A DNA stretch of 54,754 nucleotides from Acidobacteriota bacterium (GTDB lineage Bacteria > Acidobacteriota > Vicinamibacteria > Vicinamibacterales > UBA8438). The first letter of the stretch is position 1; each line of letters starts with the position of its first letter. A model generated the notes under the pieces. That model was not told the DNA's origin. It searched no databases and saw only the letters and a list, made by a program, of their open reading frames with translations. Positions 742 to 29,272 of the stretch are shown one piece after another. The stretch covers positions 1 through 54,754 of the forward strand of contig VXME01000015.1 of assembly GCA_009861545.1 (NCBI GenBank), read 5' to 3'. The position numbers were made by a program, and so were the translations under genes.

Positions 742-3450
742 CCGCTCGCCCCCCAGGCTGAGCAGGTTCGCCAGCAGGGCGTACGCGCCGGTCGTTCCCG
801 CGGGAAGCTGCCGCCAGAGACCGAGTCCGACGTAGATCCAGCGTCCGCGGCCCGGTTGCGCCTCGACCAGGGCCCCGCGCTTGAGGCCGGGGTTGTACTC
901 GAACGTGTCCTCGAGCTCGACCAGATCGGCGTAGCGCCGGTCGCGCTCGCCGAGAAAGTACAGGCCGCGCTCCTGCACCCACTGATCCCATGTCGCCGGA
1001 CCGACCGGATTGGGCCAGGCGAACACGGGATGATCGTTGGCGAGAACACGAATGGGCGCCGACTCGTCCGTCACCCGGTTGCGGCTGACGAGGGCCGGAT
1101 ACGGGCCGTACTGCGCCTGGTTGAACTCGAACTTGTTGTACTGGACGATGACCGTCCCGCCGTCGTCGGCGTACTCCAGCAGCCGATCGTTGTTCGCGCG
1201 CAGGTCCTGCCGGCGCTCGTAGGCACGCACGCCGGTGACGATGACGTCGAAACGCGACAGGTCGCCCCACGCCAGATCGTCGGCATCGACGAACTCGAGC
1301 CGCGCGCCGAGCTGCTCGATCGCCGGGGGCACGGCGTCGCCCACGCCCTCGACGTAGCCGACCAGCAAATCCGGCGCAATGGTTACGTCGATGACCTTGA
1401 ACGTCCCGTCTGCCGGCCGGCCGATGTGGCGCCGCTCGATGTGTGGATACTCGATGACCTGGTAGCCGCGCTCGAACCTCTCACCCCCGTCCTCGACCGC
1501 CGCGCGCACGCTGTATTCGCCCGCCGCCGCGCCGCCCGCCGACACGTCGAAGCGGACCGTGCGGGACTCGTCCTCGCGCGACAACCGCACCGGCACGGTC
1601 GCCGGGGTCGCGCTCCATCCCCGGGGCAACTCCAGGGTGACGGCGCCCTCGGCCGCCTCCGGGGCGGTGTTCGTTACCGTTACGCGGACCTCACGAACGG
1701 CGCCGGACCCCGTCGGGATGATCGCGATGTCGGGCGTCATGGAGACGGCGAAACGCGGCACCACCTGCAGGTCCATCCGCTTCTCGGCCGTGAATACGTC
1801 GTCGACGTAGCGGTGGCGGACGGGCCGCTCCACCGCCAGACGCGCCCGCCCTCCCAGCTCGATCTCGACAACGGCCCGGAACGGCGTCGGGCGGAACGGC
1901 AGCCCGAACGGCACGTCCGGATCCAGGACGTAACGGTCCGCCCCTTCGACATGACTCCAGTGGATGTCGGTGGTCCGCGCGGCGGCGGGAATCCGCACCT
2001 GCTGATCGCAGACGTACACGCCGCCCGCGCGGATCGGCCCGCTGTCGCACGCCGCCGCGCCGTCGAAGCCGAGGAGGCTGACATCACGGACGGTCACCCC
2101 GGAGCCGCTGCCGCCGGGGCCGTGATTCGCCGCCCGCACGGTCACCTCCACCGATTGGCCGGGCGTCACGACGCCGTCGTCCGCGAACGCGTCGATGGAC
2201 ACCGCGAAGTCGAGCAGGACCGCCCGCTCGAACTGGCGCTCCTTGGCCGCCAACCGGAAATCGATCTCCCGGCGGGCGTCGGCGGACAACGCCATTCCGG
2301 CGAGGCGGGCGCGCAGATCGCGCACCGCTTCCAGACCTTCGATCAGCGGCTGGTGCCCCGGCCCGGACACGCGGATCGACCTACCGGCCCTGTGGAATCG
2401 TCCCTCGCCGCGCTCGAAGGTGCGCAGGGCGTCGGATGCATACATGCCGATCCGTTCCAGCGTCCACCGGAGCTCGTCGGGCGGATTCTCGCCGGCGAAG
2501 CGCGCGAGCCCCGCGATGGAGGTGTCCACGCCGTCGAACAACGAGGCGTCGGCGGCCGCCGAGTGGTCCGCAATGGCCGTCTCGGCGAGACGGTAGCGCC
2601 CGCCGGCCGGGCCGGACGGCAGGGCGACAAACTGCCCCATGCCCTGGCACTTGTGCATGCCGCGTGCGAGGCTGCCGATCTCCGCCCAGGTCGCGCCGAG
2701 CAGCGGATCGTAGCCGCCCAGATCGACCGTGGTCAGCTCCGGGTCGGACGCCGACCGGAAGCGGAATCCCGGCGGACCGAAACCCATGCCGAAGGGGAAC
2801 CCGACGCGGAAATAGAACTTGCGCGCCTGCCAGGGCGCCAGCCCCTCGGCGATCTGCTCCGGGAAGCGTTCCGGGTCCGCGGCGGCGTGCCACGCCTCGT
2901 GCGCCAGCACCGCCGACGCCTGGTGATGCTGGCCGCCGCCGCGCCCCTCCGGCGACATGGCGGAGACCACGTCGGGCCGGATGGTGCGAATCATCCGGAC
3001 GAAGTCGCCGAGGATCTCGTCCCGGCCCCACCGCTCGAAGGTCTCCTCGATGCTGAAGGAGTAACCGAAGTCGACGGCGCGGGTGAAGTACTGCTCGGCG
3101 CCGTCCAGCCGGTGCGCGGCGTGCAGCTCCTCGGTCCGCAACACCGCCAGCGCGTCGAACAGCTCGGCGCCGATCTCGTTCTGGCCGCCGTCGCCGCGCG
3201 TCGCCGACAGCAGCACGGCGCGGTGGCCCTCGCCTCTCGACAGTCGCGCCAGCAGGGCATTGTTCTCGTCGTCGGGATGGGCCACGATCGACATGAAGGA
3301 ACCGGTGCTGTTGAGCTGGCGCAGGGCGACGCCGAGCGCCTCCCGCCCCTCGCCCGACGCGAGCGGCTGCGCGTGGGCCGCTGTCCCGAAACCGCCGACT
3401 CCTATCGCTAGCATCGCCCCGACCACGGCTGCGAATCGATGGATGTGCAT
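739..3450 (-). CDS. Exported PIG-L family deacetylase with C-terminal GATase-like domain
   Basis: This 903-residue protein begins with a signal peptide ending near AHA. The ATG at 3450 is chosen because the signal peptide starts there; the open frame extends further but without protein-like composition. Residues of about 35-300 form a PIG-L/LmbE deacetylase domain with the Zn-binding motif AHPDDE and a later HHQAS run. The middle is beta-rich with NEW3/CARDB-like segments. The last about 230 residues resemble a class I GATase-like Rossmann domain (DDGGTVIVQYNKFEF) with no evident catalytic cysteine. Family role: removal of N-acetyl groups from sugars. The gene lies 23 bp downstream of the bshA-like gene, but size and export argue against it being the cytosolic bacillithiol deacetylase BshB. 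A periplasmic glycan substrate is inferred. Confidence 0.85.
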   Translation of the reverse strand: MHIHRFAAVVGAMLAIGVGGFGTAAHAQPLASGEGREALGVALRQLNSTGSFMSIVAHPDDENNALLARLSRGEGHRAVLLSATRGDGGQNEIGAELFDALAVLRTEELHAAHRLDGAEQYFTRAVDFGYSFSIEETFERWGRDEILGDFVRMIRTIRPDVVSAMSPEGRGGGQHHQASAVLAHEAWHAAADPERFPEQIAEGLAPWQARKFYFRVGFPFGMGFGPPGFRFRSASDPELTTVDLGGYDPLLGATWAEIGSLARGMHKCQGMGQFVALPSGPAGGRYRLAETAIADHSAAADASLFDGVDTSIAGLARFAGENPPDELRWTLERIGMYASDALRTFERGEGRFHRAGRSIRVSGPGHQPLIEGLEAVRDLRARLAGMALSADARREIDFRLAAKERQFERAVLLDFAVSIDAFADDGVVTPGQSVEVTVRAANHGPGGSGSGVTVRDVSLLGFDGAAACDSGPIRAGGVYVCDQQVRIPAAARTTDIHWSHVEGADRYVLDPDVPFGLPFRPTPFRAVVEIELGGRARLAVERPVRHRYVDDVFTAEKRMDLQVVPRFAVSMTPDIAIIPTGSGAVREVRVTVTNTAPEAAEGAVTLELPRGWSATPATVPVRLSREDESRTVRFDVSAGGAAAGEYSVRAAVEDGGERFERGYQVIEYPHIERRHIGRPADGTFKVIDVTIAPDLLVGYVEGVGDAVPPAIEQLGARLEFVDADDLAWGDLSRFDVIVTGVRAYERRQDLRANNDRLLEYADDGGTVIVQYNKFEFNQAQYGPYPALVSRNRVTDESAPIRVLANDHPVFAWPNPVGPATWDQWVQERGLYFLGERDRRYADLVELEDTFEYNPGLKRGALVEAQPGRGRWIYVGLGLWRQLPAGTTGAYALLANLLSLGGER

Positions 3451-3473
3451 GGTTCTCCCAGTATAGCGACGCG

Positions 3474-4667
3474 TCAGGATCCGCCGAACCGCGCCGGAAT
3501 GGCCGCATCGTCCCGGACCGCCGCCGCGTCCTGGAGCAGCACGGCCTTGTAGAACGCCTCGTAGCGCGGCACGACCTCGTCGGCGCAGAAGTGATCGTGC
3601 ACTCGCCGCCAGCCGCCGGCCGCGATGCGGCGATGCAGCGCGGGGTCGGTCAGCAACCGGACCGCGCACGCGGTCATGCCGTCGAGGTCCTCCGGGTCGC
3701 GGAGGAAACCCGACTCGCCGTCGGTGATCACCTCGGGCAGACCACCGACCCGCGACGCGACCACCGGGACCGAGCACGCCATGGCCTCGAGCGCAGCGAC
3801 GCCGAAGCTCTCCTGCGCCGAAGGCAGCAGGCACAGATCCGCCAGGGACAGGAGGGGCACCACCAGCTCCTGCTCCCCGAGCGCTTCGACATCGCTCGCC
3901 AGTCCCAGATCACGTGCGCGTCGGCAGGCGGCCGACAGGTCGGGCCCGTCCCCCACCAGCAGGAGGCGCGCGGGCACCTGCTCGCGGATGCGGCGAAACA
4001 GCTCGACCACCACATCCGCCCGCTTGACCGGCCTGAAGTTCGAGACGTGGATCACCAGCTTCGTGTCGGACCGGCCGCCGCGGTAACGCGCCGCCAGGCC
4101 GGCGTCGGCGATCCGCCGGTGATCCCGGCAGTCGAGGAAGTTGGGAATGACCTCGATCCGCGACCGTACCGGCAGTTGGCGGTACGTGTCGTCCCGCAGG
4201 CTCCCCGAGACCGCGGTGACGCCGTGCGACTGGTCGATGGAGAAGGCGACCGTCTCCAGGTAGGACGCATCGCTGCCGATCAGCGTGACGTCGGTGCCGT
4301 GCAACGTGGTGATGACCCGCGGCACGTGGCCGTCCCCGGAGGCGGCCACGATCTGCCGGGCGAGGTAGGCGGCGGTCGCGTGCGGCACGGCGTAGTGCGC
4401 GTGAATGATGTCGAGCCGGCCCTCGCGGCACACCTCGACGATCTTGTTGGCGAGCGTCAGCAGGTACTGCGGCTCCCGGAACAGCGGGTAGCCTGGAGTC
4501 CGCACGGCGTGAAACGCCAGGCCCGCCTGGAAGTCGCCCAGTCGCACCGGCGGCTCGCTGCTGATGAGCCGCACCTCGTGGCCGCGCCGCGCGAGGCCCT
4601 TGGCGAGCTCGGTGGCAACGATGCCGCTGCCGCCGACGGATGCGTAGCAGACGATGCCGACGTTCAT
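3474..4667 (-). CDS. bshA: GT4 glycosyltransferase, BshA-like (N-acetylglucosaminyl L-malate synthase)
   Basis: This 397-residue cytosolic protein has a full GT-B architecture. The N-terminus MNVGIVCYASVGGSGIVATE, the segment DIIHAHYAVPHATAAYLA, the TTLHGTDVTLIG motif and the C-terminal ESFGVAALEAMACSVPVVAS nucleotide-sugar site match the BshA subgroup of family 4 glycosyltransferases. BshA joins UDP-GlcNAc to L-malate, the first step of bacillithiol synthesis, a pathway recorded in Acidobacteria. The start at 4667 is the only good ATG but has a weak ribosome site. It probably forms a two-gene unit with the PIG-L gene downstream. BshB and BshC are not in the window, so pathway completeness cannot be judged. 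Confidence 0.85.
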   Translation of the reverse strand: MNVGIVCYASVGGSGIVATELAKGLARRGHEVRLISSEPPVRLGDFQAGLAFHAVRTPGYPLFREPQYLLTLANKIVEVCREGRLDIIHAHYAVPHATAAYLARQIVAASGDGHVPRVITTLHGTDVTLIGSDASYLETVAFSIDQSHGVTAVSGSLRDDTYRQLPVRSRIEVIPNFLDCRDHRRIADAGLAARYRGGRSDTKLVIHVSNFRPVKRADVVVELFRRIREQVPARLLLVGDGPDLSAACRRARDLGLASDVEALGEQELVVPLLSLADLCLLPSAQESFGVAALEAMACSVPVVASRVGGLPEVITDGESGFLRDPEDLDGMTACAVRLLTDPALHRRIAAGGWRRVHDHFCADEVVPRYEAFYKAVLLQDAAAVRDDAAIPARFGGS

Positions 4668-14783: not shown

Positions 14784-17210
14784 CTAGACGTGCGTCGACA
14801 GCTTGTTGTGAGCCTCGTCGAGATCGTGATTGAGCATCGTCAGAATCATGTCGCCCATGATCGGCGAGCGGTTGAAGTCGACGTTGCCGCCCAGCGCGTC
14901 GGAGATGGCGTTGAGCACCGCTCCCGCGCCCGCCCCGACCGGCGCCTCGCCGATGCCCTTGGCGCCTAGCGGGTTGAAGGGATCCGGGTCGTCCGAGACG
15001 CTCCAGGCCATCTCCTGGTCGTGCGGCGCGTCGAGGATCGTCGGCGGCCGGTTCGAGTAGAACCGCTTCGCCACGTGCAGCCCCCACTGCGGGTCCATGA
15101 CCCACTTCTGGCCAAGCGCCACACCGAAGCCCTGAATCCCGCCGCCGTGCACCTGACCCGCGAAGTTCTGCGGGTGCAGAACCGTCCCGGCGTCGGAGGC
15201 CACCTTGTAGTCCTTCAACACCACCGCCCCGGTCTCGGTGTCCACCTCGACCTCGGCGAAGCCGATGCAGAACGACATGTTCCGGCCACCGGTCTCGAAG
15301 TTGTCCTTGGCGGCGACCACGAGTCCCCGACCGGCGAGCGCGGTGGCCGACCGCGTCGTCATCTCGTTGAGGTCCTCGGGCAACTGCGACCCGTCGTAGA
15401 CGCCGCCGAGCTGGATGGCGCGCTCGGCCGCCTGACCGAACGTCATCGCCTGCCCGCGGTTGCCGCGACGGAAGACGCGGCCTTCCCCGACGTCGAAGCT
15501 GTCCGGCTCGCCGCCGAACCGGTCCGCCGCGATCTCCTGGAGGCGCTTCTTGGCCTCCAGGCCGGCCGCCCAGTTCGAGCGGGTGTGGCCGTGGGTCGTC
15601 TGGCTGCCGCCCTGGATCGCGCTCCACGGCAGATGCTTGCTGGTGTCGCCCCAGACCACCTCGGCCTGCTCCCACGGCGTGTCGAGCGCTTCCATCGCCG
15701 CGCGCGACGTGTCGGAGAACGACTCCGTGCCGAGGTTGCCGACGCCGGTGTGAATCTCGACCATGCCGTCGGGCCGAATCACCAGCAGGCCGTCGACGCC
15801 CGATGTTCCGGCGGAGTACGAGCTGATCGCAACGCCGACCCCGGTCACCTTGGAGCCGTTGCGCTGGCCGCTGCGCGCCTTCATGCCTTCCCAGTCGAAC
15901 TCCTCGCGCGCCTTGTCGATGGCTTCCTTCGGGAAGGCGCTCGAGACGTTGCCCTGCCGCCCCTGCCGCGGGCGGCCGAACAGCGCCTGCCCCTGCGGGG
16001 CGTTGGTGTGGATGATGTCGAGCCGGTCGAGGCCGAGCTGCCGCGCCGCCTTGTCGACGACCGGCGCGAACATCGCGACCGCCTGGACGCCGCCCGGCGC
16101 ACGCTGCGCACCGCGCGGAGGCGTGTTCGTGTAGACGGTCATGCCCCGCACCCGCATGTTCGCGGGCTGATACATCAGCGAAGCCTGGTCGCCGCACGAC
16201 ATGTAGTCGCCGGACCGGCCGTAGGGGCCGCCGTCCTGAACCATCGTCAGGTCGATGGCGACGATCCGGCCGTCGCTCTTGAACCCGAACTTGGCGCGGG
16301 CCTGGATGCCGGGCCGGGCGCGCCCGAAGAAGTTCTCTTCCTGCCGGGTCACGCGCATCATGACCGGCCTGCCCGCCTTGCGCGAGAGCAGCGCCGGAAT
16401 CCGCGACTGGATGGAGGCGGAGATCTTGCTGCCGAACCCGCCGCCGCAGTACTCGGCGACGAGCACGAGGTCGGTCGGATCGATGCCGATCCAGCGGGCC
16501 ATGCCGCCCTCGGTGCGGGCCGTGCTCTGGGTCGAGCAGTGCATGTAGCACTTGCCGTTCTGCCAGTAGGCCATCGCGGTACGGGTCTCGAGCGGCTGGT
16601 GCGACAGCGACGCGGAGAACACCGATTCGTCGAGAATCAGATCCGCCTCGGCGAACCCGGCGTCGACGTCGCCGACCTGCCACTCGTCGGTCACCTCGCC
16701 GCCCGTCGGCATGATGCCGCGGTCGAACCCGGCCCAGTCGACGTTGTCCCACTTGATCGTCGACAGGTCGCGGCCGGCCATCGTGTTGCCGTCGAGCCGC
16801 GCGTTCGGGCCGCCCGGACGCAGGCTGTCCATCGGGTCGAGAACGAAGGGCAGCGGCTCGAAGTCGATCTGCACCGCCTCGACCGCCTCCGCCGCGGTCT
16901 CTTCGTCGACCGCCGCGATGGCCAGAATCGGCTCGCCCTCGTACAAGGGCTCGTTGGTCAGACCCGCTTCCTGCGGCGCCTCGGCCTCGGGCAGATCGTC
17001 CGCGGTCAGAATCGCTTCCACCCCGGGCATCGCCATCGCCGCGCTGGTGTCCAGGCGTCGAACGCGCGCGTGCGGCATCGGGCTGACGAGCAGCTTCGTG
17101 AAGAGCATGCCCTCCGCGCGAAAGTCCTCGGCGTACTTCGCACGCCCCGTGACCTTGGCGAGGATGTCGGGCGTCGTGTAGTTCTTGCCGATCAGCTTGT
17201 AGTCAGCCAT
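14784..17210 (-). CDS. Molybdenum hydroxylase large (molybdopterin-binding) subunit
   Basis: This 808-residue protein starts after GAGGAG and has the xanthine oxidase-family layout: an N-terminal a/b hammerhead (about 20-125) with AKVTGRAKYAEDF, then the molybdopterin-binding domains. Motifs include EYCGGGFGSKIS, GAQRAPGGVQ and HGGGIQGFGVALGQ. The catalytic base is Glu755 in GAKGIGEAPVGAG. It has no signal peptide. The protein is closest in style to aldehyde/aromatic hydroxylases; CoxL-type CO dehydrogenase is unlikely because its Cys-bearing active-site loop is not seen. The substrate cannot be told from sequence. It lies two bases after the FeS gene and is clearly in its operon. Confidence 0.92.
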   Translation of the reverse strand: MADYKLIGKNYTTPDILAKVTGRAKYAEDFRAEGMLFTKLLVSPMPHARVRRLDTSAAMAMPGVEAILTADDLPEAEAPQEAGLTNEPLYEGEPILAIAAVDEETAAEAVEAVQIDFEPLPFVLDPMDSLRPGGPNARLDGNTMAGRDLSTIKWDNVDWAGFDRGIMPTGGEVTDEWQVGDVDAGFAEADLILDESVFSASLSHQPLETRTAMAYWQNGKCYMHCSTQSTARTEGGMARWIGIDPTDLVLVAEYCGGGFGSKISASIQSRIPALLSRKAGRPVMMRVTRQEENFFGRARPGIQARAKFGFKSDGRIVAIDLTMVQDGGPYGRSGDYMSCGDQASLMYQPANMRVRGMTVYTNTPPRGAQRAPGGVQAVAMFAPVVDKAARQLGLDRLDIIHTNAPQGQALFGRPRQGRQGNVSSAFPKEAIDKAREEFDWEGMKARSGQRNGSKVTGVGVAISSYSAGTSGVDGLLVIRPDGMVEIHTGVGNLGTESFSDTSRAAMEALDTPWEQAEVVWGDTSKHLPWSAIQGGSQTTHGHTRSNWAAGLEAKKRLQEIAADRFGGEPDSFDVGEGRVFRRGNRGQAMTFGQAAERAIQLGGVYDGSQLPEDLNEMTTRSATALAGRGLVVAAKDNFETGGRNMSFCIGFAEVEVDTETGAVVLKDYKVASDAGTVLHPQNFAGQVHGGGIQGFGVALGQKWVMDPQWGLHVAKRFYSNRPPTILDAPHDQEMAWSVSDDPDPFNPLGAKGIGEAPVGAGAGAVLNAISDALGGNVDFNRSPIMGDMILTMLNHDLDEAHNKLSTHV

Positions 17211-17212
17211 CG

Positions 17213-17863
17213 TCAGCTCCTCATCCCGTTACGCGTATACTCGCACGCCTTCTCGGCGACGTTGAGGATCTTGTTGTAGTCGATGCACCGGCAGATGTTG
17301 CCGGCGAGATGGTGCGCGCACTCGCCCCGGGTCGCGTTGGGGTTCTCTTCGGTCAGGTTGACCATGTTCATCACGAAGCCGGGCATGCAGAAGGCACACT
17401 GGAAGCCCTGCAGGTCGACGACCGCCTGCTGCACCGGATGCAGCGTCCCGTCGGCGCCCTCGAGCCCCTCGATGGTCTGCACTTCGCGGCCGCGAACCTG
17501 ATGGGTCAGGGTCGAGCAGGAGTACTGCGGCACGCCATCCACGAGAACGGTGCAGGCGCCGCACTCGGCGCGGTCGCAGCCGATCTTCGTGCCGGTCAGA
17601 CCCAGCTTGTACCGCAGGGTCATGGCCAGGGTCTCCTGCGGCATGACGTCGACGCGGCGCTGCTGCCCGTTGACGTTCAACGTCACCAGCCGCTCGACGG
17701 CGCCCGGCGCCTGCGCCAGGGCCACGCCGTGACCGTTCCGCAGAACGTAGTTCGACGCCGATACGCTGGCGCCGGTGGCGATCACTCCCTTGATGAAGCC
17801 CCGCCGTGAAACGCCCTGCTGCTCTGTAGTTGTCTGCACTTGCGTGTGCGCCACGTCTCCCAT
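17213..17863 (-). CDS. Molybdenum hydroxylase [2Fe-2S] subunit with Tat signal
   Basis: This 216-residue protein has an N-terminal extension with the twin-arginine motif SRRGFIKG and a hydrophobic stretch (about residues 20-50) ending near ALAQA. A plant-type ferredoxin domain follows with GCDRAECGACTVL and a later CST, then the helical second FeS domain with QCAFCMPG and NICRC. All eight cluster cysteines are present. It is the first gene of the operon and starts after GAGGAGG. Because only this subunit bears a Tat signal, the folded three-subunit enzyme is probably exported by piggyback. Confidence 0.93.
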   Translation of the reverse strand: MGDVAHTQVQTTTEQQGVSRRGFIKGVIATGASVSASNYVLRNGHGVALAQAPGAVERLVTLNVNGQQRRVDVMPQETLAMTLRYKLGLTGTKIGCDRAECGACTVLVDGVPQYSCSTLTHQVRGREVQTIEGLEGADGTLHPVQQAVVDLQGFQCAFCMPGFVMNMVNLTEENPNATRGECAHHLAGNICRCIDYNKILNVAEKACEYTRNGMRS

Positions 17864-18151: not shown

Positions 18152-19549
18152 TCAATCCTCGGCCCGGATCATGCCATGCGCCCGGCCGAACCAGTAGCTG
18201 ACCAGATAGTCGAGGCCGTTCGTCTCGAACGGCGCCACGGCATGGCGGTCGCCTCCGACGCGGTAGGGATTGTGGACGAGGAAGCTCCACGTGCGGCCGC
18301 GCTGGGCGATCGGCAGGGGTCCGTCGCCCGTCAACGGCGCCACCGGGTCGGCGGTGAACGAGAATCCGAAGCGGCGGGCGTAGGTCTCGATGGTGCCTGC
18401 GTTCCACTTCATGTCGAGCGGCACGCCGCGCAGCGTGTCGAGCGCAGCGGCGTCATACGTCCGGTCACCGGTCCAGTGCCGGTGGAGAAACGTCGCCAGC
18501 GGATTCCCCTCGACATCGATGCCGGGATACGTCCGGCCGTGGAACCAGCGGTGCGCCGCCCGCTCGTAGTGCAGCCGGACCGCGGCATCGGTCTCGAGCT
18601 CCAGGAGCGGGTACAGCGCGAGCGCTATCAGGACGTCGTCGGAGTGGTTCGCCTCTCGCGGCGGACGGTCCAGACGCGCGCCCTCGCCGATGCGCGCGTA
18701 CCCCATCTGCAGCAACCGCGCGTACTCCCGGCCGAAGCGGGGCAGCCCGGTCAACTCGTGCGCCACCTTGACCATCTGCAACATCAGCAGGGCATTCATC
18801 GGCTCCTCGCCGGCGACGTAGGCGGGCTCGTAGCGCCCCCAGCGGGTGGGCCGGCCGTCGTAGCCGATGATGCGAAGGCCGTCGTCGACGATCGCGTCGA
18901 CCACCGCGGCCACCGTTTCGCCGATCGCCTCCCGCTCGCGCGCGTCGGCCAGATGCATCGTGTACACGAAGAGGCCGAACATGGCCGCGTCCACCTGATC
19001 CGAGCTGACGTTGCCGCGCCAGCGGCGCCTGCCGTCCGGGCTCTCCCGCCATGTGCCGTCGTCGAGCCAGGGCTCGTCGATCGGCGCCGACGCCCGCGCC
19101 AGCAGACCGTCGCGACCGGTCACCGCGACGAGATGCCTGAGCGCGGCGGCGGCCGTCCGCGCACGCCGCGCGGCCTCCGGATCGCCGGTGGCGAGCTGGC
19201 GCCATGTCTGGGCCGCGCAGTAGAGGCCGGTCATGTACGCCGTGTCGGACATGTTCCAGGTGACGTAGGGGTGCTCCGCGGTCGGCAGCCTGCGGCGCAC
19301 CCGCACCTGGCCGTCCGCGGCCAGGAAGCGCTCGGCCAGGTCGACGTCGAACAGGGCCGCCTTCGCCGCGAGCGAGAGGTCGTCGGCCGCGCGCCCGGGA
19401 GCGGCGCCGATGCCGGCCAGGACAGCGGCCGCAACCGCGCCGGCCGCGGCGCTTCGCCGCAGGCTGACGCCGCCGTGCCCTGCCGGTTCGCAGCCGCGCC
19501 GCCGCGCGGGCCGGCGTGTCTCGCGCGCACGCGCCGGTGCAGGGATCAT
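18152..19549 (-). CDS. Exported protein, predicted alpha-toroid glycan-active type
   Basis: Start ATG 19549 overlaps the sulfatase stop as ATGA, so the two are translationally coupled; the open frame further upstream is a shadow of the sulfatase gene. The 465-residue product has a basic leader with a hydrophobic stretch ending GRAAD. The rest is made of repeated helical hairpins typical of (alpha/alpha) toroid glycan lyases and hydrolases, with TWNMSDTAYMTGLYCAAQTW, SSDQVDAAMFGLFVYTMHLA and EPMNALLMLQMVKVA. I cannot assign a family or catalytic residues. Coupling to a sulfatase suggests work on a sulfated polysaccharide or glycan. This is inference. Confidence 0.65.
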   Translation of the reverse strand: MIPAPARARETRRPARRRGCEPAGHGGVSLRRSAAAGAVAAAVLAGIGAAPGRAADDLSLAAKAALFDVDLAERFLAADGQVRVRRRLPTAEHPYVTWNMSDTAYMTGLYCAAQTWRQLATGDPEAARRARTAAAALRHLVAVTGRDGLLARASAPIDEPWLDDGTWRESPDGRRRWRGNVSSDQVDAAMFGLFVYTMHLADAREREAIGETVAAVVDAIVDDGLRIIGYDGRPTRWGRYEPAYVAGEEPMNALLMLQMVKVAHELTGLPRFGREYARLLQMGYARIGEGARLDRPPREANHSDDVLIALALYPLLELETDAAVRLHYERAAHRWFHGRTYPGIDVEGNPLATFLHRHWTGDRTYDAAALDTLRGVPLDMKWNAGTIETYARRFGFSFTADPVAPLTGDGPLPIAQRGRTWSFLVHNPYRVGGDRHAVAPFETNGLDYLVSYWFGRAHGMIRAED

Positions 19550-21057
19550 CGCGCGCCCCGCGCGTCGAACAGCGGCTCGGCGACGGTCATCCCGGCGCGG
19601 TGAGCCTCGACCGCGGCCAGCAGATCGGCCACCACGTCGGGACGCTCCGGCGCCAGGTCGTACTTCTCTCCCGGATCGTCGCCGAGATGGAAGAGCAGCG
19701 GCGGATCGTGCGTGGCGCGCGCGGAGCCCAGGCCGTAGCGCCCCTCGGTCACCAGGTGCACCTTGTACGGCCCCCGGCGGTAGGCGTAGAGCTCTCCCAT
19801 GCGGTAGAACGCCATCCAGTCGCGCGGGCTCGAACCCCGCCCGAGGAGCACCGGCGAGAGGTCGACTCCGTCCAGAGGCCGATCGTCCGGCACCGTCCCC
19901 CCGGCGAGCGGAACGACGGTGGTGAAAAGGTCCGTGGTGGCGCCGATGTCCCTGATCACCCCCGGCGGGATGGTCCCCGGCCACCAGAAGATGCCCGGTA
20001 CGCGCATGCCGCCCTCCCACGTGGTCCCCTTGCCCTGGCGCAGCATCCCGGCGCTCCCCCCGTGCTGCCGGTAGGACAGCCACGGCCCGTTGTCGCTGGA
20101 GAAGACGACCAGCGTGCGCTCGGCGAGCCCCTCTTCCCGCAACGTGTCGAGGATGCGGCCGACGCCCCAGTCGATCTCCTCGATCACGTCGCCGTAGCGC
20201 CCCGCGCGGCTCCGGCCGGCGAACGCCTCGGAGCGGAACAGGGGAACGTGCGGCATGGTGTGGGGTACATAGAGGAAGAACGGCCGGTCACGGTGCTCCC
20301 GGATGAACCGCACCGCCTCCTCCGCGTACCGGCGCGTGATCGTGGTCTGGTCGGCCGGCCGCTCCAGCACCTCGTCGTTGCGCATGAGCGGCACGTGCCA
20401 GTATTCGATCGATGGATCGAGAATCGCGGCGCGGCGCGCGTCACGACCGGGCGGCACCCGCCAGTCCATGTCGTTCGAATACGGGATCCCGAACCACGAA
20501 TCGAAACCGTGCCGCAGCGGGCGATACGCCGGCTGGTGGCCGAGGTGCCATTTTCCGACGATGCCGGTCGCGTAGCCGACCTCCTTCAACGCCTCGGCCA
20601 GGGTGATCTCGGCGGCCGGCAGACCGTGGTGCGAGTCCTGGAAGAACACCCCCTGGCGCCGGCCGAACATCCCGCTCCGCAGGTGTATGCGCCCGGTCAG
20701 CAGGGCCGCCCGGCTCGGCGAGCAGACCGGGGCCTGCGAGTAGAAGCTGGTCCAGCGCTGGCCCTCGGCGGCCATGCGGTCGAGGTGGGGCGTGCGGATC
20801 GTCGGGTGCCCGTAGGCGCCGAGGTCGCCGTACCCGAGGTCGTCGGCGAAGATGATGACGATGTTGGGCGGTGGGCTCTGCGCGGCGAGCCGCTCGGGCG
20901 GACCGAGCGCCGCGGCGGCAACCCCCGCCGCGGCCCCGAGCGCCGCCAGGCGCCTCGTGGCGAAGGCACTCGAGCGCCGCGCCCGCCGCTGCGTGACCGA
21001 GCGACGATGCCGTCCCGCCGGTACCGACGTGGTGTCACTGCATGGCATACCGGTCAT
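19546..21057 (-). CDS. Exported type I sulfatase (arylsulfatase family)
   Basis: This 503-residue protein starts at ATG 21057, with an alternative at 21048 after GAGG; upstream frame is Arg-rich non-coding-like sequence. A basic leader precedes a hydrophobic segment ending RLAAQ. The sulfatase domain opens with PPNIVIIFADDLGYGDLGAYG (first metal-binding Asp pair) and carries the formylglycine motif CSPSR with Cys112, then GKWHLGH and SSDNGPW. The Cys-type motif means activation by a formylglycine-generating enzyme, which is not in this window. It hydrolyses sulfate esters. The gene is upstream partner of the toroid protein and divergent from the TetR gene. Confidence 0.93.
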   Translation of the reverse strand: MTGMPCSDTTSVPAGRHRRSVTQRRARRSSAFATRRLAALGAAAGVAAAALGPPERLAAQSPPPNIVIIFADDLGYGDLGAYGHPTIRTPHLDRMAAEGQRWTSFYSQAPVCSPSRAALLTGRIHLRSGMFGRRQGVFFQDSHHGLPAAEITLAEALKEVGYATGIVGKWHLGHQPAYRPLRHGFDSWFGIPYSNDMDWRVPPGRDARRAAILDPSIEYWHVPLMRNDEVLERPADQTTITRRYAEEAVRFIREHRDRPFFLYVPHTMPHVPLFRSEAFAGRSRAGRYGDVIEEIDWGVGRILDTLREEGLAERTLVVFSSDNGPWLSYRQHGGSAGMLRQGKGTTWEGGMRVPGIFWWPGTIPPGVIRDIGATTDLFTTVVPLAGGTVPDDRPLDGVDLSPVLLGRGSSPRDWMAFYRMGELYAYRRGPYKVHLVTEGRYGLGSARATHDPPLLFHLGDDPGEKYDLAPERPDVVADLLAAVEAHRAGMTVAEPLFDARGAR

Positions 21058-21234
21058 CCTCGATGTCAGGCCGGCCCACGCGAGCGCCGGCGCGAACCGC
21101 CGCCGGCGCCGTGACCGGCGGCCGATCCGATTGTAGCCGCAGCGCCGCGGCGGGCTTCCGGCCACCGGCCTTGTCGCAGCGGTCACACCACGCGGCGTTC
21201 CGTGCACCAATCGGAAAACACGCGACTGCGACCT

Positions 21235-21280
21235 TTGAACTTTCTCTTCTTTCATACGTATGATTGAAACAGTTGTTTAA
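21235..21280 (+). promoter_or_regulatory. Promoter and TetR-type operator of the efflux operon
   Basis: TTGAAC (21235-21240) and TATGAT (21259-21264) with an 18-bp spacer form a good sigma-70 promoter in an AT-rich island. A 10-bp palindrome CATACGTATG (21253-21262) overlaps the -10 box. Immediately downstream, AAAC-AGTT-GTTT (21267-21278) with TT/AA flanks is a typical TetR-family operator layout. Binding there would block initiation of tetR-OMF-MFP-RND. Confidence 0.6.
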
Positions 21281-21299: not shown

Positions 21300-21959
21300 A
21301 TGGCAATGGACACCCGGGAGCGCATTCTCGACGTCGCCGAGCGGCTGTTCGGCGAGCGCGGGTTCCCGGCGACCCCGCTGCGCGACATCACCACGGAGGC
21401 CGGGGTCAACGTCGCGTCGGTGAACTACCACTTCGGCTCGAAGGAAGCGCTGCTGGCGGAGGTGCTCGAGAGGCGTCTGAAGCCCATCAACGCACGCCGC
21501 CTGGAGCTGCTCGACGCCGTGGAGGCGCAGGCCGGGGACGGACCTCCGGAGCTCGAAGCCGTCATCCGGGCGTTCCTGTCGCCCCCGTTCCACAGCCAGC
21601 GCGCGTGGGGCGACAAGGGCCGGAACTTCCTGCGGCTGGTGGGCCGGATCCACGGCGAGACCAACGAGGAGTTCCGCGCGACCTTCGTCAAGCAGTTCGA
21701 CGCGGTGCTGGAGCGGTTCACGGCCGCTCTTCACCGCGCGCGGCCGGAACTCGATGAAGCGGATCTGAGCTGGCGGATGCTGTTCATGGTCGGGTCGATG
21801 GCGTTCACGATGTCCTGGGGGCCCGAGCTCCGGGCGCGCGGGCGGGGCGGAGGGCGCGATCCGGAAGATGTGCTGGAGTCGCTCGTGCTGTACGCCGCCG
21901 CCGGAATGGCGGCGCCGGCGCCGCTCGGCGTGCCGGCCGTGGCGGCCACCGCACGATGA
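21300..21959 (+). CDS. TetR family transcriptional repressor
   Basis: Start at ATG 21300 is favoured by an AGGAGA upstream; a TTG at 21264 would overlap the promoter and operator. The 219-residue product begins MAMDTRERILDVAERLFGER, followed by the helix-turn-helix segment PLRDITTEAGVNVASVNYHF and GSKEALLAEVL, typical of TetR. The C-terminal ligand domain resembles the TetR_C group found with RND pumps. It lies 10 bp before the outer-membrane factor gene. It most likely represses this operon and responds to a pump substrate. Confidence 0.92.
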   Translation: MAMDTRERILDVAERLFGERGFPATPLRDITTEAGVNVASVNYHFGSKEALLAEVLERRLKPINARRLELLDAVEAQAGDGPPELEAVIRAFLSPPFHSQRAWGDKGRNFLRLVGRIHGETNEEFRATFVKQFDAVLERFTAALHRARPELDEADLSWRMLFMVGSMAFTMSWGPELRARGRGGGRDPEDVLESLVLYAAAGMAAPAPLGVPAVAATAR

Positions 21960-21969
21960 AGGTGCTGAC

Positions 21970-23430
21970 GTGCAGTTGTTGAGACCAACCTCGTTGATGC
22001 GTGGATTCCGGGCCGTGGCGCTCGCCGCCGTCGCGGCGCTGGGCGCCGGCTGCGTGACCGCTCTGCCGGTCGAGCGGCCCGAGATACGGGTCCCGGTACC
22101 GGTGGAATGGACGGCCGCCGAAGTGCCGGCCGGCGAAGTGGGTCCGGACTGGTGGACGGACTTCGGCGACGACGAGCTGAACGCTGCGATCGAGACCGTG
22201 CTGGAGCGCAACCTCGATCTGCGGGCGGCCGCCGCTCGTCTCGAACAGGCCGCCGCCGACGCGCGGATCGCATCCAGCGCGTTGCAGCCCACGGTGCAGG
22301 GCTCGTACAGCGGCAGCCGCCGCAAGCAGAACTTCGTGGGCTTTCCGATTCCCGGCGCCGAGGACCGCGTCCTGAGCACGGTGTTCACCAACCAGGGCAT
22401 CTCGCTGGACACGACGTGGGAGGTCGACCTCTGGGGCAGGCTGCGCACCACCGAGCAGGCCGCCCTGGCCGACCTGCAGCGGTCGGCGGCCGACCTGCGG
22501 GGCGCCCAACTGTCCATCGCAGGCCAGACCGCCAAGGCCTGGTTCGCCATTGCGGAGGCTCAGCAGCAGGTACTCCTGTCGGAGGCGACCGTCGAGAGCT
22601 TCGGAGAATCCGTGGCGCGCGTGCGGGATCGGTTCGAGTCGGGGGTACGCCCGGCGCTCGACCTCCGTCAGGCGATGCTGAACCTGTCCAACGCCCGCGC
22701 CGATCTCGCCCAGCGGCGGCAGCAGCTCGACGCGTCGACCCGCCAGCTCGAGGTGTTGCTGGCGCAGTACGCGGGCGCCGACATCGCCCCGCCGGCGGAC
22801 CTGCCGGAAATGGCGTCCGCCGTGCCGGGCGGAATCCCGGCCGACCTGGTGGCCCGCAGACCGGACCTCGTCGCGGCGGAGCGGCAGGTGGCGGCTTCCG
22901 AGGCACGGCTGCGCGTGGCGCGGCGGGATCTGCTTCCGAGCTTCAGCCTGACCGTGAACACCGGCACCTCGACGAATACCCTCCGCACGCTGCTCAACGG
23001 CGACTTCGCCGTCTGGGGACTCGTCGGCAACGTCCTTGCTCCGCTCTGGCAGGGAGGACGGCTGCGCGCCCAGGTGAGCCGCGCCGAGGCGCTCGTCGCC
23101 GAGGTGCTGGCCAGCTACGTGAACACGGCCCTCGCGGCGTACGCCGAGGTCGAGACGGCGCTGGCCGCCGAGGAGTACCTGGCCGACCGGGTCGTTTATC
23201 TGATGACGTCGGTCGAGCAGGCCCGCGCCGCGGAACGCCTGGCCGACGAACGCTACCGGACCGGGCTGGACACTTACATCACCGTGCTCGACTCGCAGCG
23301 ATCGGCGTTTCAGGCCGAATCCCAGTTGATCGCGGCGCGGCGCCTGCGTCTGGAGAACCGCGTGGACCTGTACCTGGCCCTCGGCGGCGGGTTCGAGCAG
23401 CTCGACTCGCCGATCGCGATGACCAACTGA
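21970..23430 (+). CDS. Outer-membrane efflux lipoprotein (TolC/NodT family)
   Basis: GTG 21970 follows AAGGTG by five bases and is taken as start; an in-frame ATG at 21997 is the alternative. The 486-residue protein has a signal peptide with lipobox ALGAGC, then WWTDFGDDELNAAIETVLER, the classic NodT-family start of the alpha-barrel. Two OEP repeats follow, the second opening RRPDLVAAERQVAASEARL. It forms the outer-membrane channel of the tripartite pump encoded downstream. The C-terminus LYLALGGGFEQ is family-typical. Confidence 0.93.
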   Translation: MQLLRPTSLMRGFRAVALAAVAALGAGCVTALPVERPEIRVPVPVEWTAAEVPAGEVGPDWWTDFGDDELNAAIETVLERNLDLRAAAARLEQAAADARIASSALQPTVQGSYSGSRRKQNFVGFPIPGAEDRVLSTVFTNQGISLDTTWEVDLWGRLRTTEQAALADLQRSAADLRGAQLSIAGQTAKAWFAIAEAQQQVLLSEATVESFGESVARVRDRFESGVRPALDLRQAMLNLSNARADLAQRRQQLDASTRQLEVLLAQYAGADIAPPADLPEMASAVPGGIPADLVARRPDLVAAERQVAASEARLRVARRDLLPSFSLTVNTGTSTNTLRTLLNGDFAVWGLVGNVLAPLWQGGRLRAQVSRAEALVAEVLASYVNTALAAYAEVETALAAEEYLADRVVYLMTSVEQARAAERLADERYRTGLDTYITVLDSQRSAFQAESQLIAARRLRLENRVDLYLALGGGFEQLDSPIAMTN

Positions 23431-23480: not shown

Positions 23481-25978
23481 ATGAAACGCGTAATCATCCG
23501 CACCATCAGGGCCCTTCTTCCCCTGATCATCGTCGCTGCGGCCGCCTTCGCCGCGGTCACGATGATCATGAACCGCCCACCGGTGGAGACCCTGACGCCG
23601 GTGATCGAACCGCCGGGCGTCCGCGTGCACGAGGTCTCGCTCCAGGATGCGAGCCTCTCCGTCACCAGCCAAGGCACCGTCCAGCCGCGCACCGAGAGCC
23701 AGCTCGTGCCCGAGATCGCGGGGCGCGTCACCTGGGTGGCTCCCTCCTTCGCGGAGGGCGGGTTCTTCGAGGCCGGCGATGTGCTCGTCGAGATCGACCC
23801 GTTCGACTACGAGCAGGCGCTCGTCGGCGCGCGGTCGCAACTGGCCCAGGCCCGCCTGCGGCTCGCGCAGGAGGAGGCCGAGGCGGAGGTGGCGCAGCGG
23901 GAATGGGACACGCTGGGCCGCGGCGACCCGCGCGAGCTGGCGCTGCGCAAGCCGCAGCTCGAGGATGCGCGCGCCTCGGTGGCCGCCGCCGAGGCGGGTG
24001 TCGAGCGGGCCACGCGGGACCTGCAGCGCGCGGAGATCGTGGCGCCGTACGCCGGCCGGGTCCGCACGAAGAACGTCGACATCGGCCAGTACGTCCGGGT
24101 CGGCGACGCGCTCGCCACCGTGTACGCGGTCGACGTGGCCGAGATTCGCCTGCCGCTGCCCGACGACGAGCTCGCCTACCTGGACCTGCCGCTGTCGTAC
24201 CGCGGCGTCGAGCAGCAGGTGCGGCCGCTCGTGACGCTGCACGCGACCTTCGCCGGCGAGACCCATGCCTGGGACGGCCTCATCGTCCGCACCGAGAGCG
24301 AGATCGACTCGGTGAGCCGCATGGTGCACGCGATTGCGGAGGTTCCGGACCCCTACGCGCCGGGTCCCAATCCCAACCGGCCCCCGCTCGCCGTCGGAAT
24401 GTACGTGGAAGCCGAGATCAACGGCCGCACCGCGCGCGATGTCGCGGTGTTGCCGCGCCAGGCGCTGCGCGGCCGGGATCAGGTGCTCGTGGTCACGCCC
24501 GACGACCGACTCTCGTTCCGCACGATCGCCGTATTGCGGACCTCGACCGAGTCCGTGATCGTGCGTTCGGGCCTGCAGGCGGGCGAGCTCGTGGTCATCT
24601 CGCCGCTCGACACGCCGACCGACGGCATGCGGGTGCAGTTGGCCGATGCGGACCCCGGCCTGCTGGAGCGCCGCGCGGCCGCCGCTGCGGCCCCGCCTTC
24701 CCAGGCCGCGGCTCCGGCCGCGCAACGGGTAGATGCGCCGGCCTCCCAGGTCGGCGCTCCGGCTGCGACGGCTGCCTCGAACGTGCCGATCGAGCCCGCC
24801 GCCGCCCGCCGGGCGGAAGCCGCACCAGGGGTGCCGCCCGTACCGGCTGAACCGGCGGCGGCAGCGCGGCCCGGCGCGGCCCGGGCGGTAGCGGCCACGG
24901 AGCAGGCGCCCCCGGGCGCGCCTGGCGGCGGAGCGACGACGGCCGGACGCGCGGACCAACCGCAGTGGCTGGCGTCTCTGCTGGCAGAACGCCGGCCGGC
25001 GGCAGAGAACCTGCGCTCTCGTCCGCCCCGCACGAGACCGGCGGCGGCACGGCCGACGCGAGGCCGGCCGGACGCAGAGTCCGTTGCGCGGCCGGCGCGC
25101 CGACGGCCGGGCGCAGAGCCCGTTGCGCGACCGGCGGCAACGGTTGCCGCCGCCCCGCGGCGCCCTGCTCTTCGCACGCCGGACGCGGCGCCCGCGAGCG
25201 TCGTTGCGGTCGCCTCGTTCGCGAGTCTCAATCGCGCGACCGGCGATGCCGGGCTCGGTCCGGCGTTGAGCCGGGCCGTCGCCGCGCGTCTGGCGTCGTC
25301 CGACGACATCGCGGTGTCGGAGAACGAGTCCGATGCGCGGTACGTCGTCCGCGGTGGGCTCCAGCAGGTCGGCCCGCTGGTGCGGGTCACCGCGCGCATC
25401 GTCGACACCGAGAACGGCGCCGTGCTGCACGCGGCGAAGATCGACGGCTCCACGGCCGATCGACCGGCCCTCGAAGCGGACGTCGCGGCGGCCGTCATCG
25501 AGCACCTCACCGCCATGCCCGGGTCGACGGCGCCGACCGCGTCCGGCGGCATGGCGGCCGGCGCGACGACGCCCAGCGCGCTGGCCGTGCTTCCGTTCGA
25601 CGATCTCAGCGCGGGCAGCGCGTCGGCCCTCGACGTGGACCTCGGGAGCGTCATCGCGGAGGCGATCGCCGAGCGGCTGTCCACGCTGGCCGCGGTGGCC
25701 GTCGTGACGCCCGGCGACGAAGCCGCCTGGGCCGTCGGCGGCGGCATCCAGCGCATCGGAACGATGGTCCGCGTGACCGCCCGGCTCACCGACGTCCGCA
25801 GCGGAGCCGTCGTGACGGCGGTGAAGGTGGACGGCACCGTCGAGGCGCTCGCCGACCTGCAGTCGCGCGTGGCGGCCGTGATGACCGAGAGCGTGCGCGA
25901 AGCACTCGCCGGCGAGTCGGTCGCCAGGTCGGGTCCCGCGACGGATCCCGCGACGCGCCGGCGCGAAGGGAGACGGTC

Positions 25979-25982
<4 letters not shown>
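23481..25982 (+). CDS. RND membrane-fusion protein fused to two TolB-N (COG5616-like) domains
   Basis: The ATG at 23481 starts a normal membrane-fusion protein: one membrane helix (about 7-30), a beta-barrel/lipoyl region with VPEIAGRVTWVAPSFAEGG, a coiled hairpin rich in Ala/Glu/Arg, YAGRVRTKNVDIGQYVRVGD, and a C-terminal membrane-proximal domain ending about residue 390. Usual family length is near 370-400. Here the frame continues to residue 833: a Pro/Ala/Arg-rich linker (about 390-570, with a duplicated RPxAExVARPA unit), then two related domains at about 572-680 and 698-815. Each has the signature of the TolB-N-like domain of COG5616 (ARYVVRGGLQQVGPLVRVTA; VLPFDDLSAGSASALDV, GGGIQRIGTMVRVTARLTDV). 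Its stop overlaps the RND start as ATGA. An unusual periplasmic sensor or peptidoglycan/Tol contact is a possible role. Confidence 0.9.

Positions 25983-29272
<3,290 letters not shown>

What the first reader, a model, noticed from the sequence alone, without database searches (positions are those of the whole stretch)
23481..25982. Efflux membrane-fusion protein with two appended TolB-N/COG5616 domains
The MFP core ends near residue 390, yet the frame continues 440 residues with a Pro/Ala/Arg linker and two related domains having the COG5616 signature. Those domains normally sit in adenylate cyclase or TPR regulators or in envelope proteins, not in RND adaptors. The linker could span from the pump through the periplasm, tethering it to the Tol system or peptidoglycan or sensing ligands.
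Basis: partly seen in the sequence, partly recalled or inferred. Interest (0 to 1): 0.75.

Follow-up and report, generated by a model that had tools for sequence, protein, structure and literature searches.

The report
Efflux-pump adaptor with TolB-like tail
In one family of uncultured Acidobacteriota, the adaptor protein of a drug-type efflux pump carries a long flexible leash ending in one or two extra envelope domains related to the front domain of TolB; the fusion is real, old and kept by selection, and it probably docks the pump to something else in the cell envelope.

Summary
The window encodes an OMF (about 21997-23430), an 833-aa RND periplasmic adaptor (23481-25982) and an RND permease (25979-29272). 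The adaptor stop overlaps the permease ATG. Residues 1-388 are a complete AcrA/MexA-like adaptor. Residues 389-572 are a disordered Pro/Ala/Arg linker with one short helix (PQWLASLL). Residues 573-680 and 698-811 are two domains of the TolB-N/FlgO/PelC/CsgG fold.

This is no assembly artefact. The same fusion occurs in independent genomes throughout one family of Acidobacteriota: 17 of 28 read through into the tail, the other 11 are cut by contig ends or lack the gene. All nine orthologs found elsewhere in the order end at the core. The tail domains are under purifying selection (dN/dS about 0.2-0.4) and form one clade, so there was probably one acquisition. Two copies arose in each of two sublineages.

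In this genome the same domain mostly heads DUF5916 outer-membrane-type proteins. A separate acidobacterial adaptor carries an AMIN domain instead.

Best reading: a leashed periplasmic docking module on an otherwise ordinary pump. The partner is unknown. Appended adaptor domains have a precedent (SilB-CusF), so this is a new variant of a known kind.

The parts
21997..23430 (+). Outer membrane factor (OEP/TolC-NodT type) of the same operon; listed frame 21868-23430, likely start ATG 21997 before a signal sequence
   Evidence: PF02321 1.4e-44; conserved upstream of the tailed adaptor in relatives
23481..24644 (+). Adaptor core, residues 1-388: N-terminal TM helix 2-30, then barrel, lipoyl, hairpin and membrane-proximal parts
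   Evidence: TIGR01730 149 bits; AF2 pLDDT about 90 over most of the core; Foldseek to AcrA 9v53 1.2e-26
24645..25196 (+). Linker, residues 389-572, 64% Pro+Ala+Arg, predicted disordered
   Evidence: pLDDT about 30-37; composition; fast-evolving, dN/dS 0.36-0.61
24960..24983 (+). Short linker motif PQWLASLL, residues 494-501, predicted helix; counterparts P.WL..[LI][LV] at residues 467-494 in three genera
25197..25520 (+). TolB-N/FlgO-like domain D1, residues 573-680
   Evidence: FlgO 26-28 bits; TolB 4pwz Z 12.8 over 106 residues
25572..25913 (+). TolB-N/FlgO-like domain D2, residues 698-811
   Evidence: FlgT 3w1e Z 12.7 over 118 residues; similarity to D1; pLDDT mostly 80-95
25979..29272 (+). 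RND permease; start ATG overlaps the adaptor stop (ATGA)
   Evidence: PF00873 9.3e-165; overlap read

Best explanation
The gene encodes a standard RND periplasmic adaptor that gained, probably once in the ancestor of this bacterial family, a leashed periplasmic docking module. The core does the ordinary job: it joins the RND permease to the OMF. The C-terminus leaves the membrane-proximal domain next to the inner membrane, so the tail lies in the periplasm (topology from known adaptors and the N-terminal TM helix; inferred). A disordered linker of about 110-275 residues in the two-domain forms lets TolB-N-fold domains move up through the periplasm. There they bind an envelope partner (an outer-membrane protein, the OMF, or peptidoglycan-bound machinery) and so hold, place or stabilise the assembled pump. 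With six adaptors per pump, most species would present twelve such domains. Shown: the architecture, the predicted fold, conservation, selection, one clade of tails, and start-stop overlap with the permease. Inferred: periplasmic location, docking, and the partner.
For: Core and operon. Fold of the tail: TolB-N, FlgT, PelC, CsgG, PqiC and LpoB among the matches, all of them envelope proteins. Conserved fusion in one family and absent from same-order orthologs. Purifying selection on D1 and D2, dN/dS 0.22-0.37 against 0.07-0.11 in the core and 0.36-0.61 in the linker. One clade for all adaptor tails at 98/85 support. Two copies in each of two sublineages, so pairing was reached twice or kept by conversion. 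ATGA/GTGA overlap with the permease in 13 of the 15 relatives read and in the window. Sister domains in the same genome sit in signal-peptide DUF5916/CBM9 outer-membrane-type proteins. An acidobacterial adaptor from another family carries a C-terminal AMIN domain, an envelope-localising domain, on a Pro/Glu linker.
Against: No partner is identified. The TolB-N fold serves many functions, so fold alone does not say docking. One member has a 32-residue linker and one domain (L104), and L090 has one domain, so neither long reach nor pairing is essential. Two genomes hold a free-standing hydrophobic-segment-linker-two-domain protein without adaptor (L092, L094), so the tail can act apart from the pump. 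D1/D2 relative placement is not predicted with confidence (pTM 0.46).
Confidence: 0.45

Rival explanations
1. Ligand-sensing or substrate-capturing domain: D1/D2 bind a small molecule or substrate in the periplasm and feed or gate the pump, as the C-terminal CusF-like domain does for metals in SilB.
For: SilB precedent for a C-terminal chaperone domain on an adaptor (PMC4446572). CadC's periplasmic domain, a sensor, is among the fold matches (Z 8.7).
Against: The TolB-N fold is mostly a protein-protein and ring-forming fold in the solved examples. Pfam found no CusF-type domain. No binding pocket was tested.
Confidence: 0.2
2. Ring-forming collar: twelve domains (6 adaptors x 2) close into a PelC/CsgG-like ring around the OMF or the pump exit.
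For: PelC, a twelve-subunit ring under PelB (PMC12141448), gives the top Foldseek E-value (1.4e-5) and the only sequence matches in the PDB that stand out (E 0.0015-0.0022). Adaptor stoichiometry 3:6:3 (PMC4446572). Pairing is found in each of two sublineages with separate D1-D2 relations.
Against: Single-domain forms exist in two genera. VIA Z-scores favour TolB and FlgT over PelC. Oligomerisation could not be tested.
Confidence: 0.12
3. Peptidoglycan-synthesis coupling, LpoB-like: the leashed domain contacts a cell-wall enzyme.
For: LpoB is a structural match (E 4.6e-4; Z 7.9); from general knowledge LpoB also sits on a long disordered leash.
Against: LpoB ranks below TolB, FlgT, PelC and CsgG. 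No cell-wall gene was recognised among the neighbours scanned by Pfam.
Confidence: 0.08
4. Passive domain accretion: a mobile domain abundant in these genomes was captured and is carried with little function for the pump.
For: The domain is found in many proteins of this genome (11 places), so capture is easy. Linker and copy number vary.
Against: Purifying selection on D1/D2 and retention in every readable ortholog of the family.
Confidence: 0.15

Closest known systems
AcrA/MexA/MdtA-type RND periplasmic adaptors (TIGR01730)
   Same: Core fold, domain order, OMF-adaptor-RND operon
   Different: About 445 extra C-terminal residues: linker plus two TolB-N-fold domains
SilB of Cupriavidus metallidurans (adaptor with C-terminal CusF domain)
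   Same: RND adaptor with an extra C-terminal periplasmic domain that also exists as a free protein
   Different: Domain is TolB-N-fold, not the CusF metal-binding barrel; duplicated; long disordered linker
TolB N-terminal domain, FlgO/FlgT, PelC, CsgG, PqiC, LpoB fold group
   Same: Fold, envelope setting
   Different: Here fused behind an efflux adaptor; no TolB propeller, no lipidation site in the adaptor
COG5616-type domains of Ser/Thr kinases with TPR
   Same: Sequence family
   Different: No kinase or TPR here
YbjP, accessory lipoprotein of TolC pumps (PMC13082787)
   Same: An extra envelope protein decorating a tripartite pump
   Different: Separate lipoprotein with a DUF3828 domain that binds TolC; not fused to the adaptor

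Membership tests
RND periplasmic adaptor (MFP) | TIGR01730 match above cut-off | tested here: met
   149.3 bits against 94.9
RND periplasmic adaptor (MFP) | Adaptor fold with alpha-hairpin, lipoyl, barrel and membrane-proximal domains | tested here: met
   AF2 core pLDDT about 90, hairpin helices 108-145 and 157-182; Foldseek to AcrA 1.2e-26
RND periplasmic adaptor (MFP) | Operon with RND permease and OMF | tested here: met
   same order of genes in relatives
RND periplasmic adaptor (MFP) | Functional efflux | not testable with these tools
   needs experiment
TolB-N/FlgO/CsgG fold superfamily (D1, D2) | Profile match above curated cut-off | tested here: met
   FlgO 28.4 bits on the tail against 22.6, carried by D1; D2 alone has no hit to these families
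TolB-N/FlgO/CsgG fold superfamily (D1, D2) | Fold | tested here: met
   Z 12.8 TolB for D1, 12.7 FlgT for D2, on a predicted model
TolB proper | C-terminal beta-propeller | tested here: not met
   No propeller by Pfam or in the model
PelC/CsgG-type ring proteins | Ring oligomer | not testable with these tools
   no multimer prediction available
SilB-type adaptor | C-terminal CusF metal-binding domain | tested here: not met
   Pfam scan up to E 10 found no CusF domain

The most novel reading that the evidence does not exclude
The TolB-N module is a shared docking currency of the envelope in this bacterial family: adaptor tails, DUF5916 outer-membrane-type proteins and Calx-beta proteins carry it and pair through it, so that one efflux pump can be coupled by a twelve-domain collar to several alternative outer-membrane partners.
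Probability: 0.1. Interest if true: 0.8.

Novelty: new variant of a known kind. Interest (0 to 1): 0.5.

Why it matters
RND adaptors are usually treated as self-contained connectors. A family-wide adaptor with covalently leashed envelope domains would show that pumps can be physically tied to other envelope structures, and it gives a natural construct (tail deletion) to test whether docking changes pump assembly. The independent adaptor-AMIN fusion hints that this is a recurring solution in Acidobacteriota.

Tried and rejected
Scan of viral contigs with the tail found no relative. Own-genome and relatives searches with the protein itself failed on the server and were replaced by family and alignment searches. 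First Pfam scan of the permease was in the wrong frame and was redone. Assembly artefact rejected: same fusion in independent assemblies. Long frames of other acidobacterial adaptors (11 loci inspected) proved to be N-side read-through of the open frame, apart from one AMIN fusion; none has a TolB-N tail. Literature searches found no report of an RND adaptor with a TolB-N domain; the held library is partial, so this is not proof of absence. DUF5916 papers: none useful.

Full report
What is there. The window holds a three-gene efflux operon on the + strand: an OMF (PF02321 1.4e-44), an adaptor (23481-25982, 833 aa) and an RND permease (PF00873 9.3e-165). The adaptor stop codon and the permease start overlap as ATGA at 25979. 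Thirteen of the fifteen relatives read show ATGA or GTGA at the same junction; L106 does not, and L145 shows the letters but no recognisable permease start was read behind them.

Core. TIGR01730 matches residues 47-386 at 149 bits. The AlphaFold2 model has an N-terminal membrane helix (2-30), the hairpin helices (108-145, 157-182) and a confident core. Foldseek places it with AcrA and MexA. Nothing in the core is unusual.

Tail. Residues 389-572 are 64% Pro, Ala and Arg with net charge about +12 and pLDDT of about 30-37, apart from a short helix at 495-502. D1 (573-680) and D2 (698-811) fold confidently. FlgO (PF17680) is the only Pfam family above its cut-off in the tail, 28.4 bits on the tail alone. 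Structure comparison gives TolB's N-terminal domain (Z 12.8, 106 residues, rmsd 2.3), FlgT (Z 12.7, 118 residues, rmsd 2.5), then CsgG, PelC and PqiC around Z 10-11.5 and LpoB at 7.9. Foldseek ranks PelC first at 1.4e-5, and PelC is the only notable sequence match in the PDB (E 0.0015).

Is it real and kept? The search for related loci returned the same fusion in three other assemblies (one is split over two contigs inside the linker). A tail profile over 162 genomes of the order found it throughout one family, f1, of 28 genomes. Seventeen read through from adaptor core into the tail (some cut at the far N- or C-end). Three are split at the linker over two contigs, four are cut by a contig end in the linker, two show only tail plus permease at a contig edge, and in two no ortholog was found. 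No readable ortholog in f1 lacks a tail. Nine orthologs in other families of the order have frames of 394-434 aa, ending at the core (four read in full). Against the window protein, dN/dS is 0.07-0.11 in the core, 0.22-0.37 in D1 and D2, and 0.36-0.61 in the linker. The tail domains are thus under purifying selection.

Origin. A tree of 70 domain copies puts all adaptor-tail domains in one clade (98/85), which argues for one acquisition. D1 and D2 do not form two clean clades: each of two sublineages has its own pair. So either tandem duplication happened twice or the copies were homogenised. L091 is a mosaic of the two. Two genera carry a single domain (L090 D2-type; L104 nearest D1, weakly). 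Two genomes have a free-standing protein, with an N-terminal hydrophobic segment, a linker and two domains, that branches from within the tails (L092, L094). The tree has few columns, so finer forks are not firm, and its group labels for some outside rows (L036 and unscanned kinases) are assumed from frame size.

Linker motifs. Despite fast drift, one sublineage keeps P.WL..[LI][LV] (7 of 7 with long linkers) and the other an [RE]...[IL]..[IL]R..[IL] helix, mostly preceded by DPS or DST and SR.EQ (8 of 9). Both look like short amphipathic helices; a binding role is possible but untested.

Where else the domain occurs. In the window's own genome most other copies are N-terminal domains, behind signal sequences, of proteins with CBM9-like and DUF5916 regions. 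Related genomes add very large proteins with two copies near the C-terminus, one confirmed as Calx-beta. Outside the family the three members scanned are Ser/Thr kinases with TPR. This expansion in extracytoplasmic proteins fits a periplasmic role for the tail.

Convergence. One complete genome from another acidobacterial family has an adaptor whose C-terminus carries, after a Pro/Glu linker, an AMIN domain (PF11741, 21.0 bits against 20.5). AMIN domains localise proteins to the cell wall (general knowledge). This looks like an independent instance of leashing an envelope domain to an RND adaptor, but it rests on one weak, just-above-threshold match.

How it likely works. Adaptor C-termini lie by the inner membrane, and six adaptors surround a permease trimer (PMC4446572). 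The tail therefore probably sends one or two TolB-N domains per adaptor into the periplasm on a leash, to bind an envelope partner. I put this docking reading at 0.45. Rivals are ligand capture as in SilB, a PelC-like twelve-domain collar (PelC's ring: PMC12141448), LpoB-like cell-wall coupling, and passive accretion. None could be decided here: no multimer prediction was available and no partner is known.

Novelty. C-terminal domains on adaptors are known from SilB. I found no report of a TolB-N-type one, in a partial library. I file it as a new variant of a known kind.

Noticed in passing
L179 (G184:C1:4136300-4142300), frame 1733-3694 +: RND adaptor with C-terminal Pro/Glu linker and AMIN domain in another acidobacterial family
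   Followed up: partly
L169, L170, L171, L173, L176, L177 (window's own genome): Several TolB-N + CBM9/DUF5916 outer-membrane-type proteins; an expanded family in this genome
   Followed up: partly
L164, L165, L167: 1650-2050 aa proteins with two TolB-N-like domains near the C-terminus; Calx-beta repeats confirmed by Pfam in L164
   Followed up: partly
L092 5519-6967 +, L094 2186-3511 -: Free-standing hydrophobic segment-linker-two-domain proteins that branch within the adaptor tails
   Followed up: partly
L187 (G024) and G050: Adaptors of a family placed outside the order match the core profile better than the same-order ones do, without a tail (the profile holds near copies of G024, so this may be bias); possible transfer of the pump
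   Followed up: no
linkers of G334, G317, G312, G319, G320, G324, G332: Contigs of several assemblies end inside the GC-rich linker, which may hide such fusions from annotation
   Followed up: no
window 14784-17863 - and 19546-21255 -: Xanthine-dehydrogenase-type molybdenum enzyme subunits and a sulfatase upstream on the opposite strand
   Followed up: no
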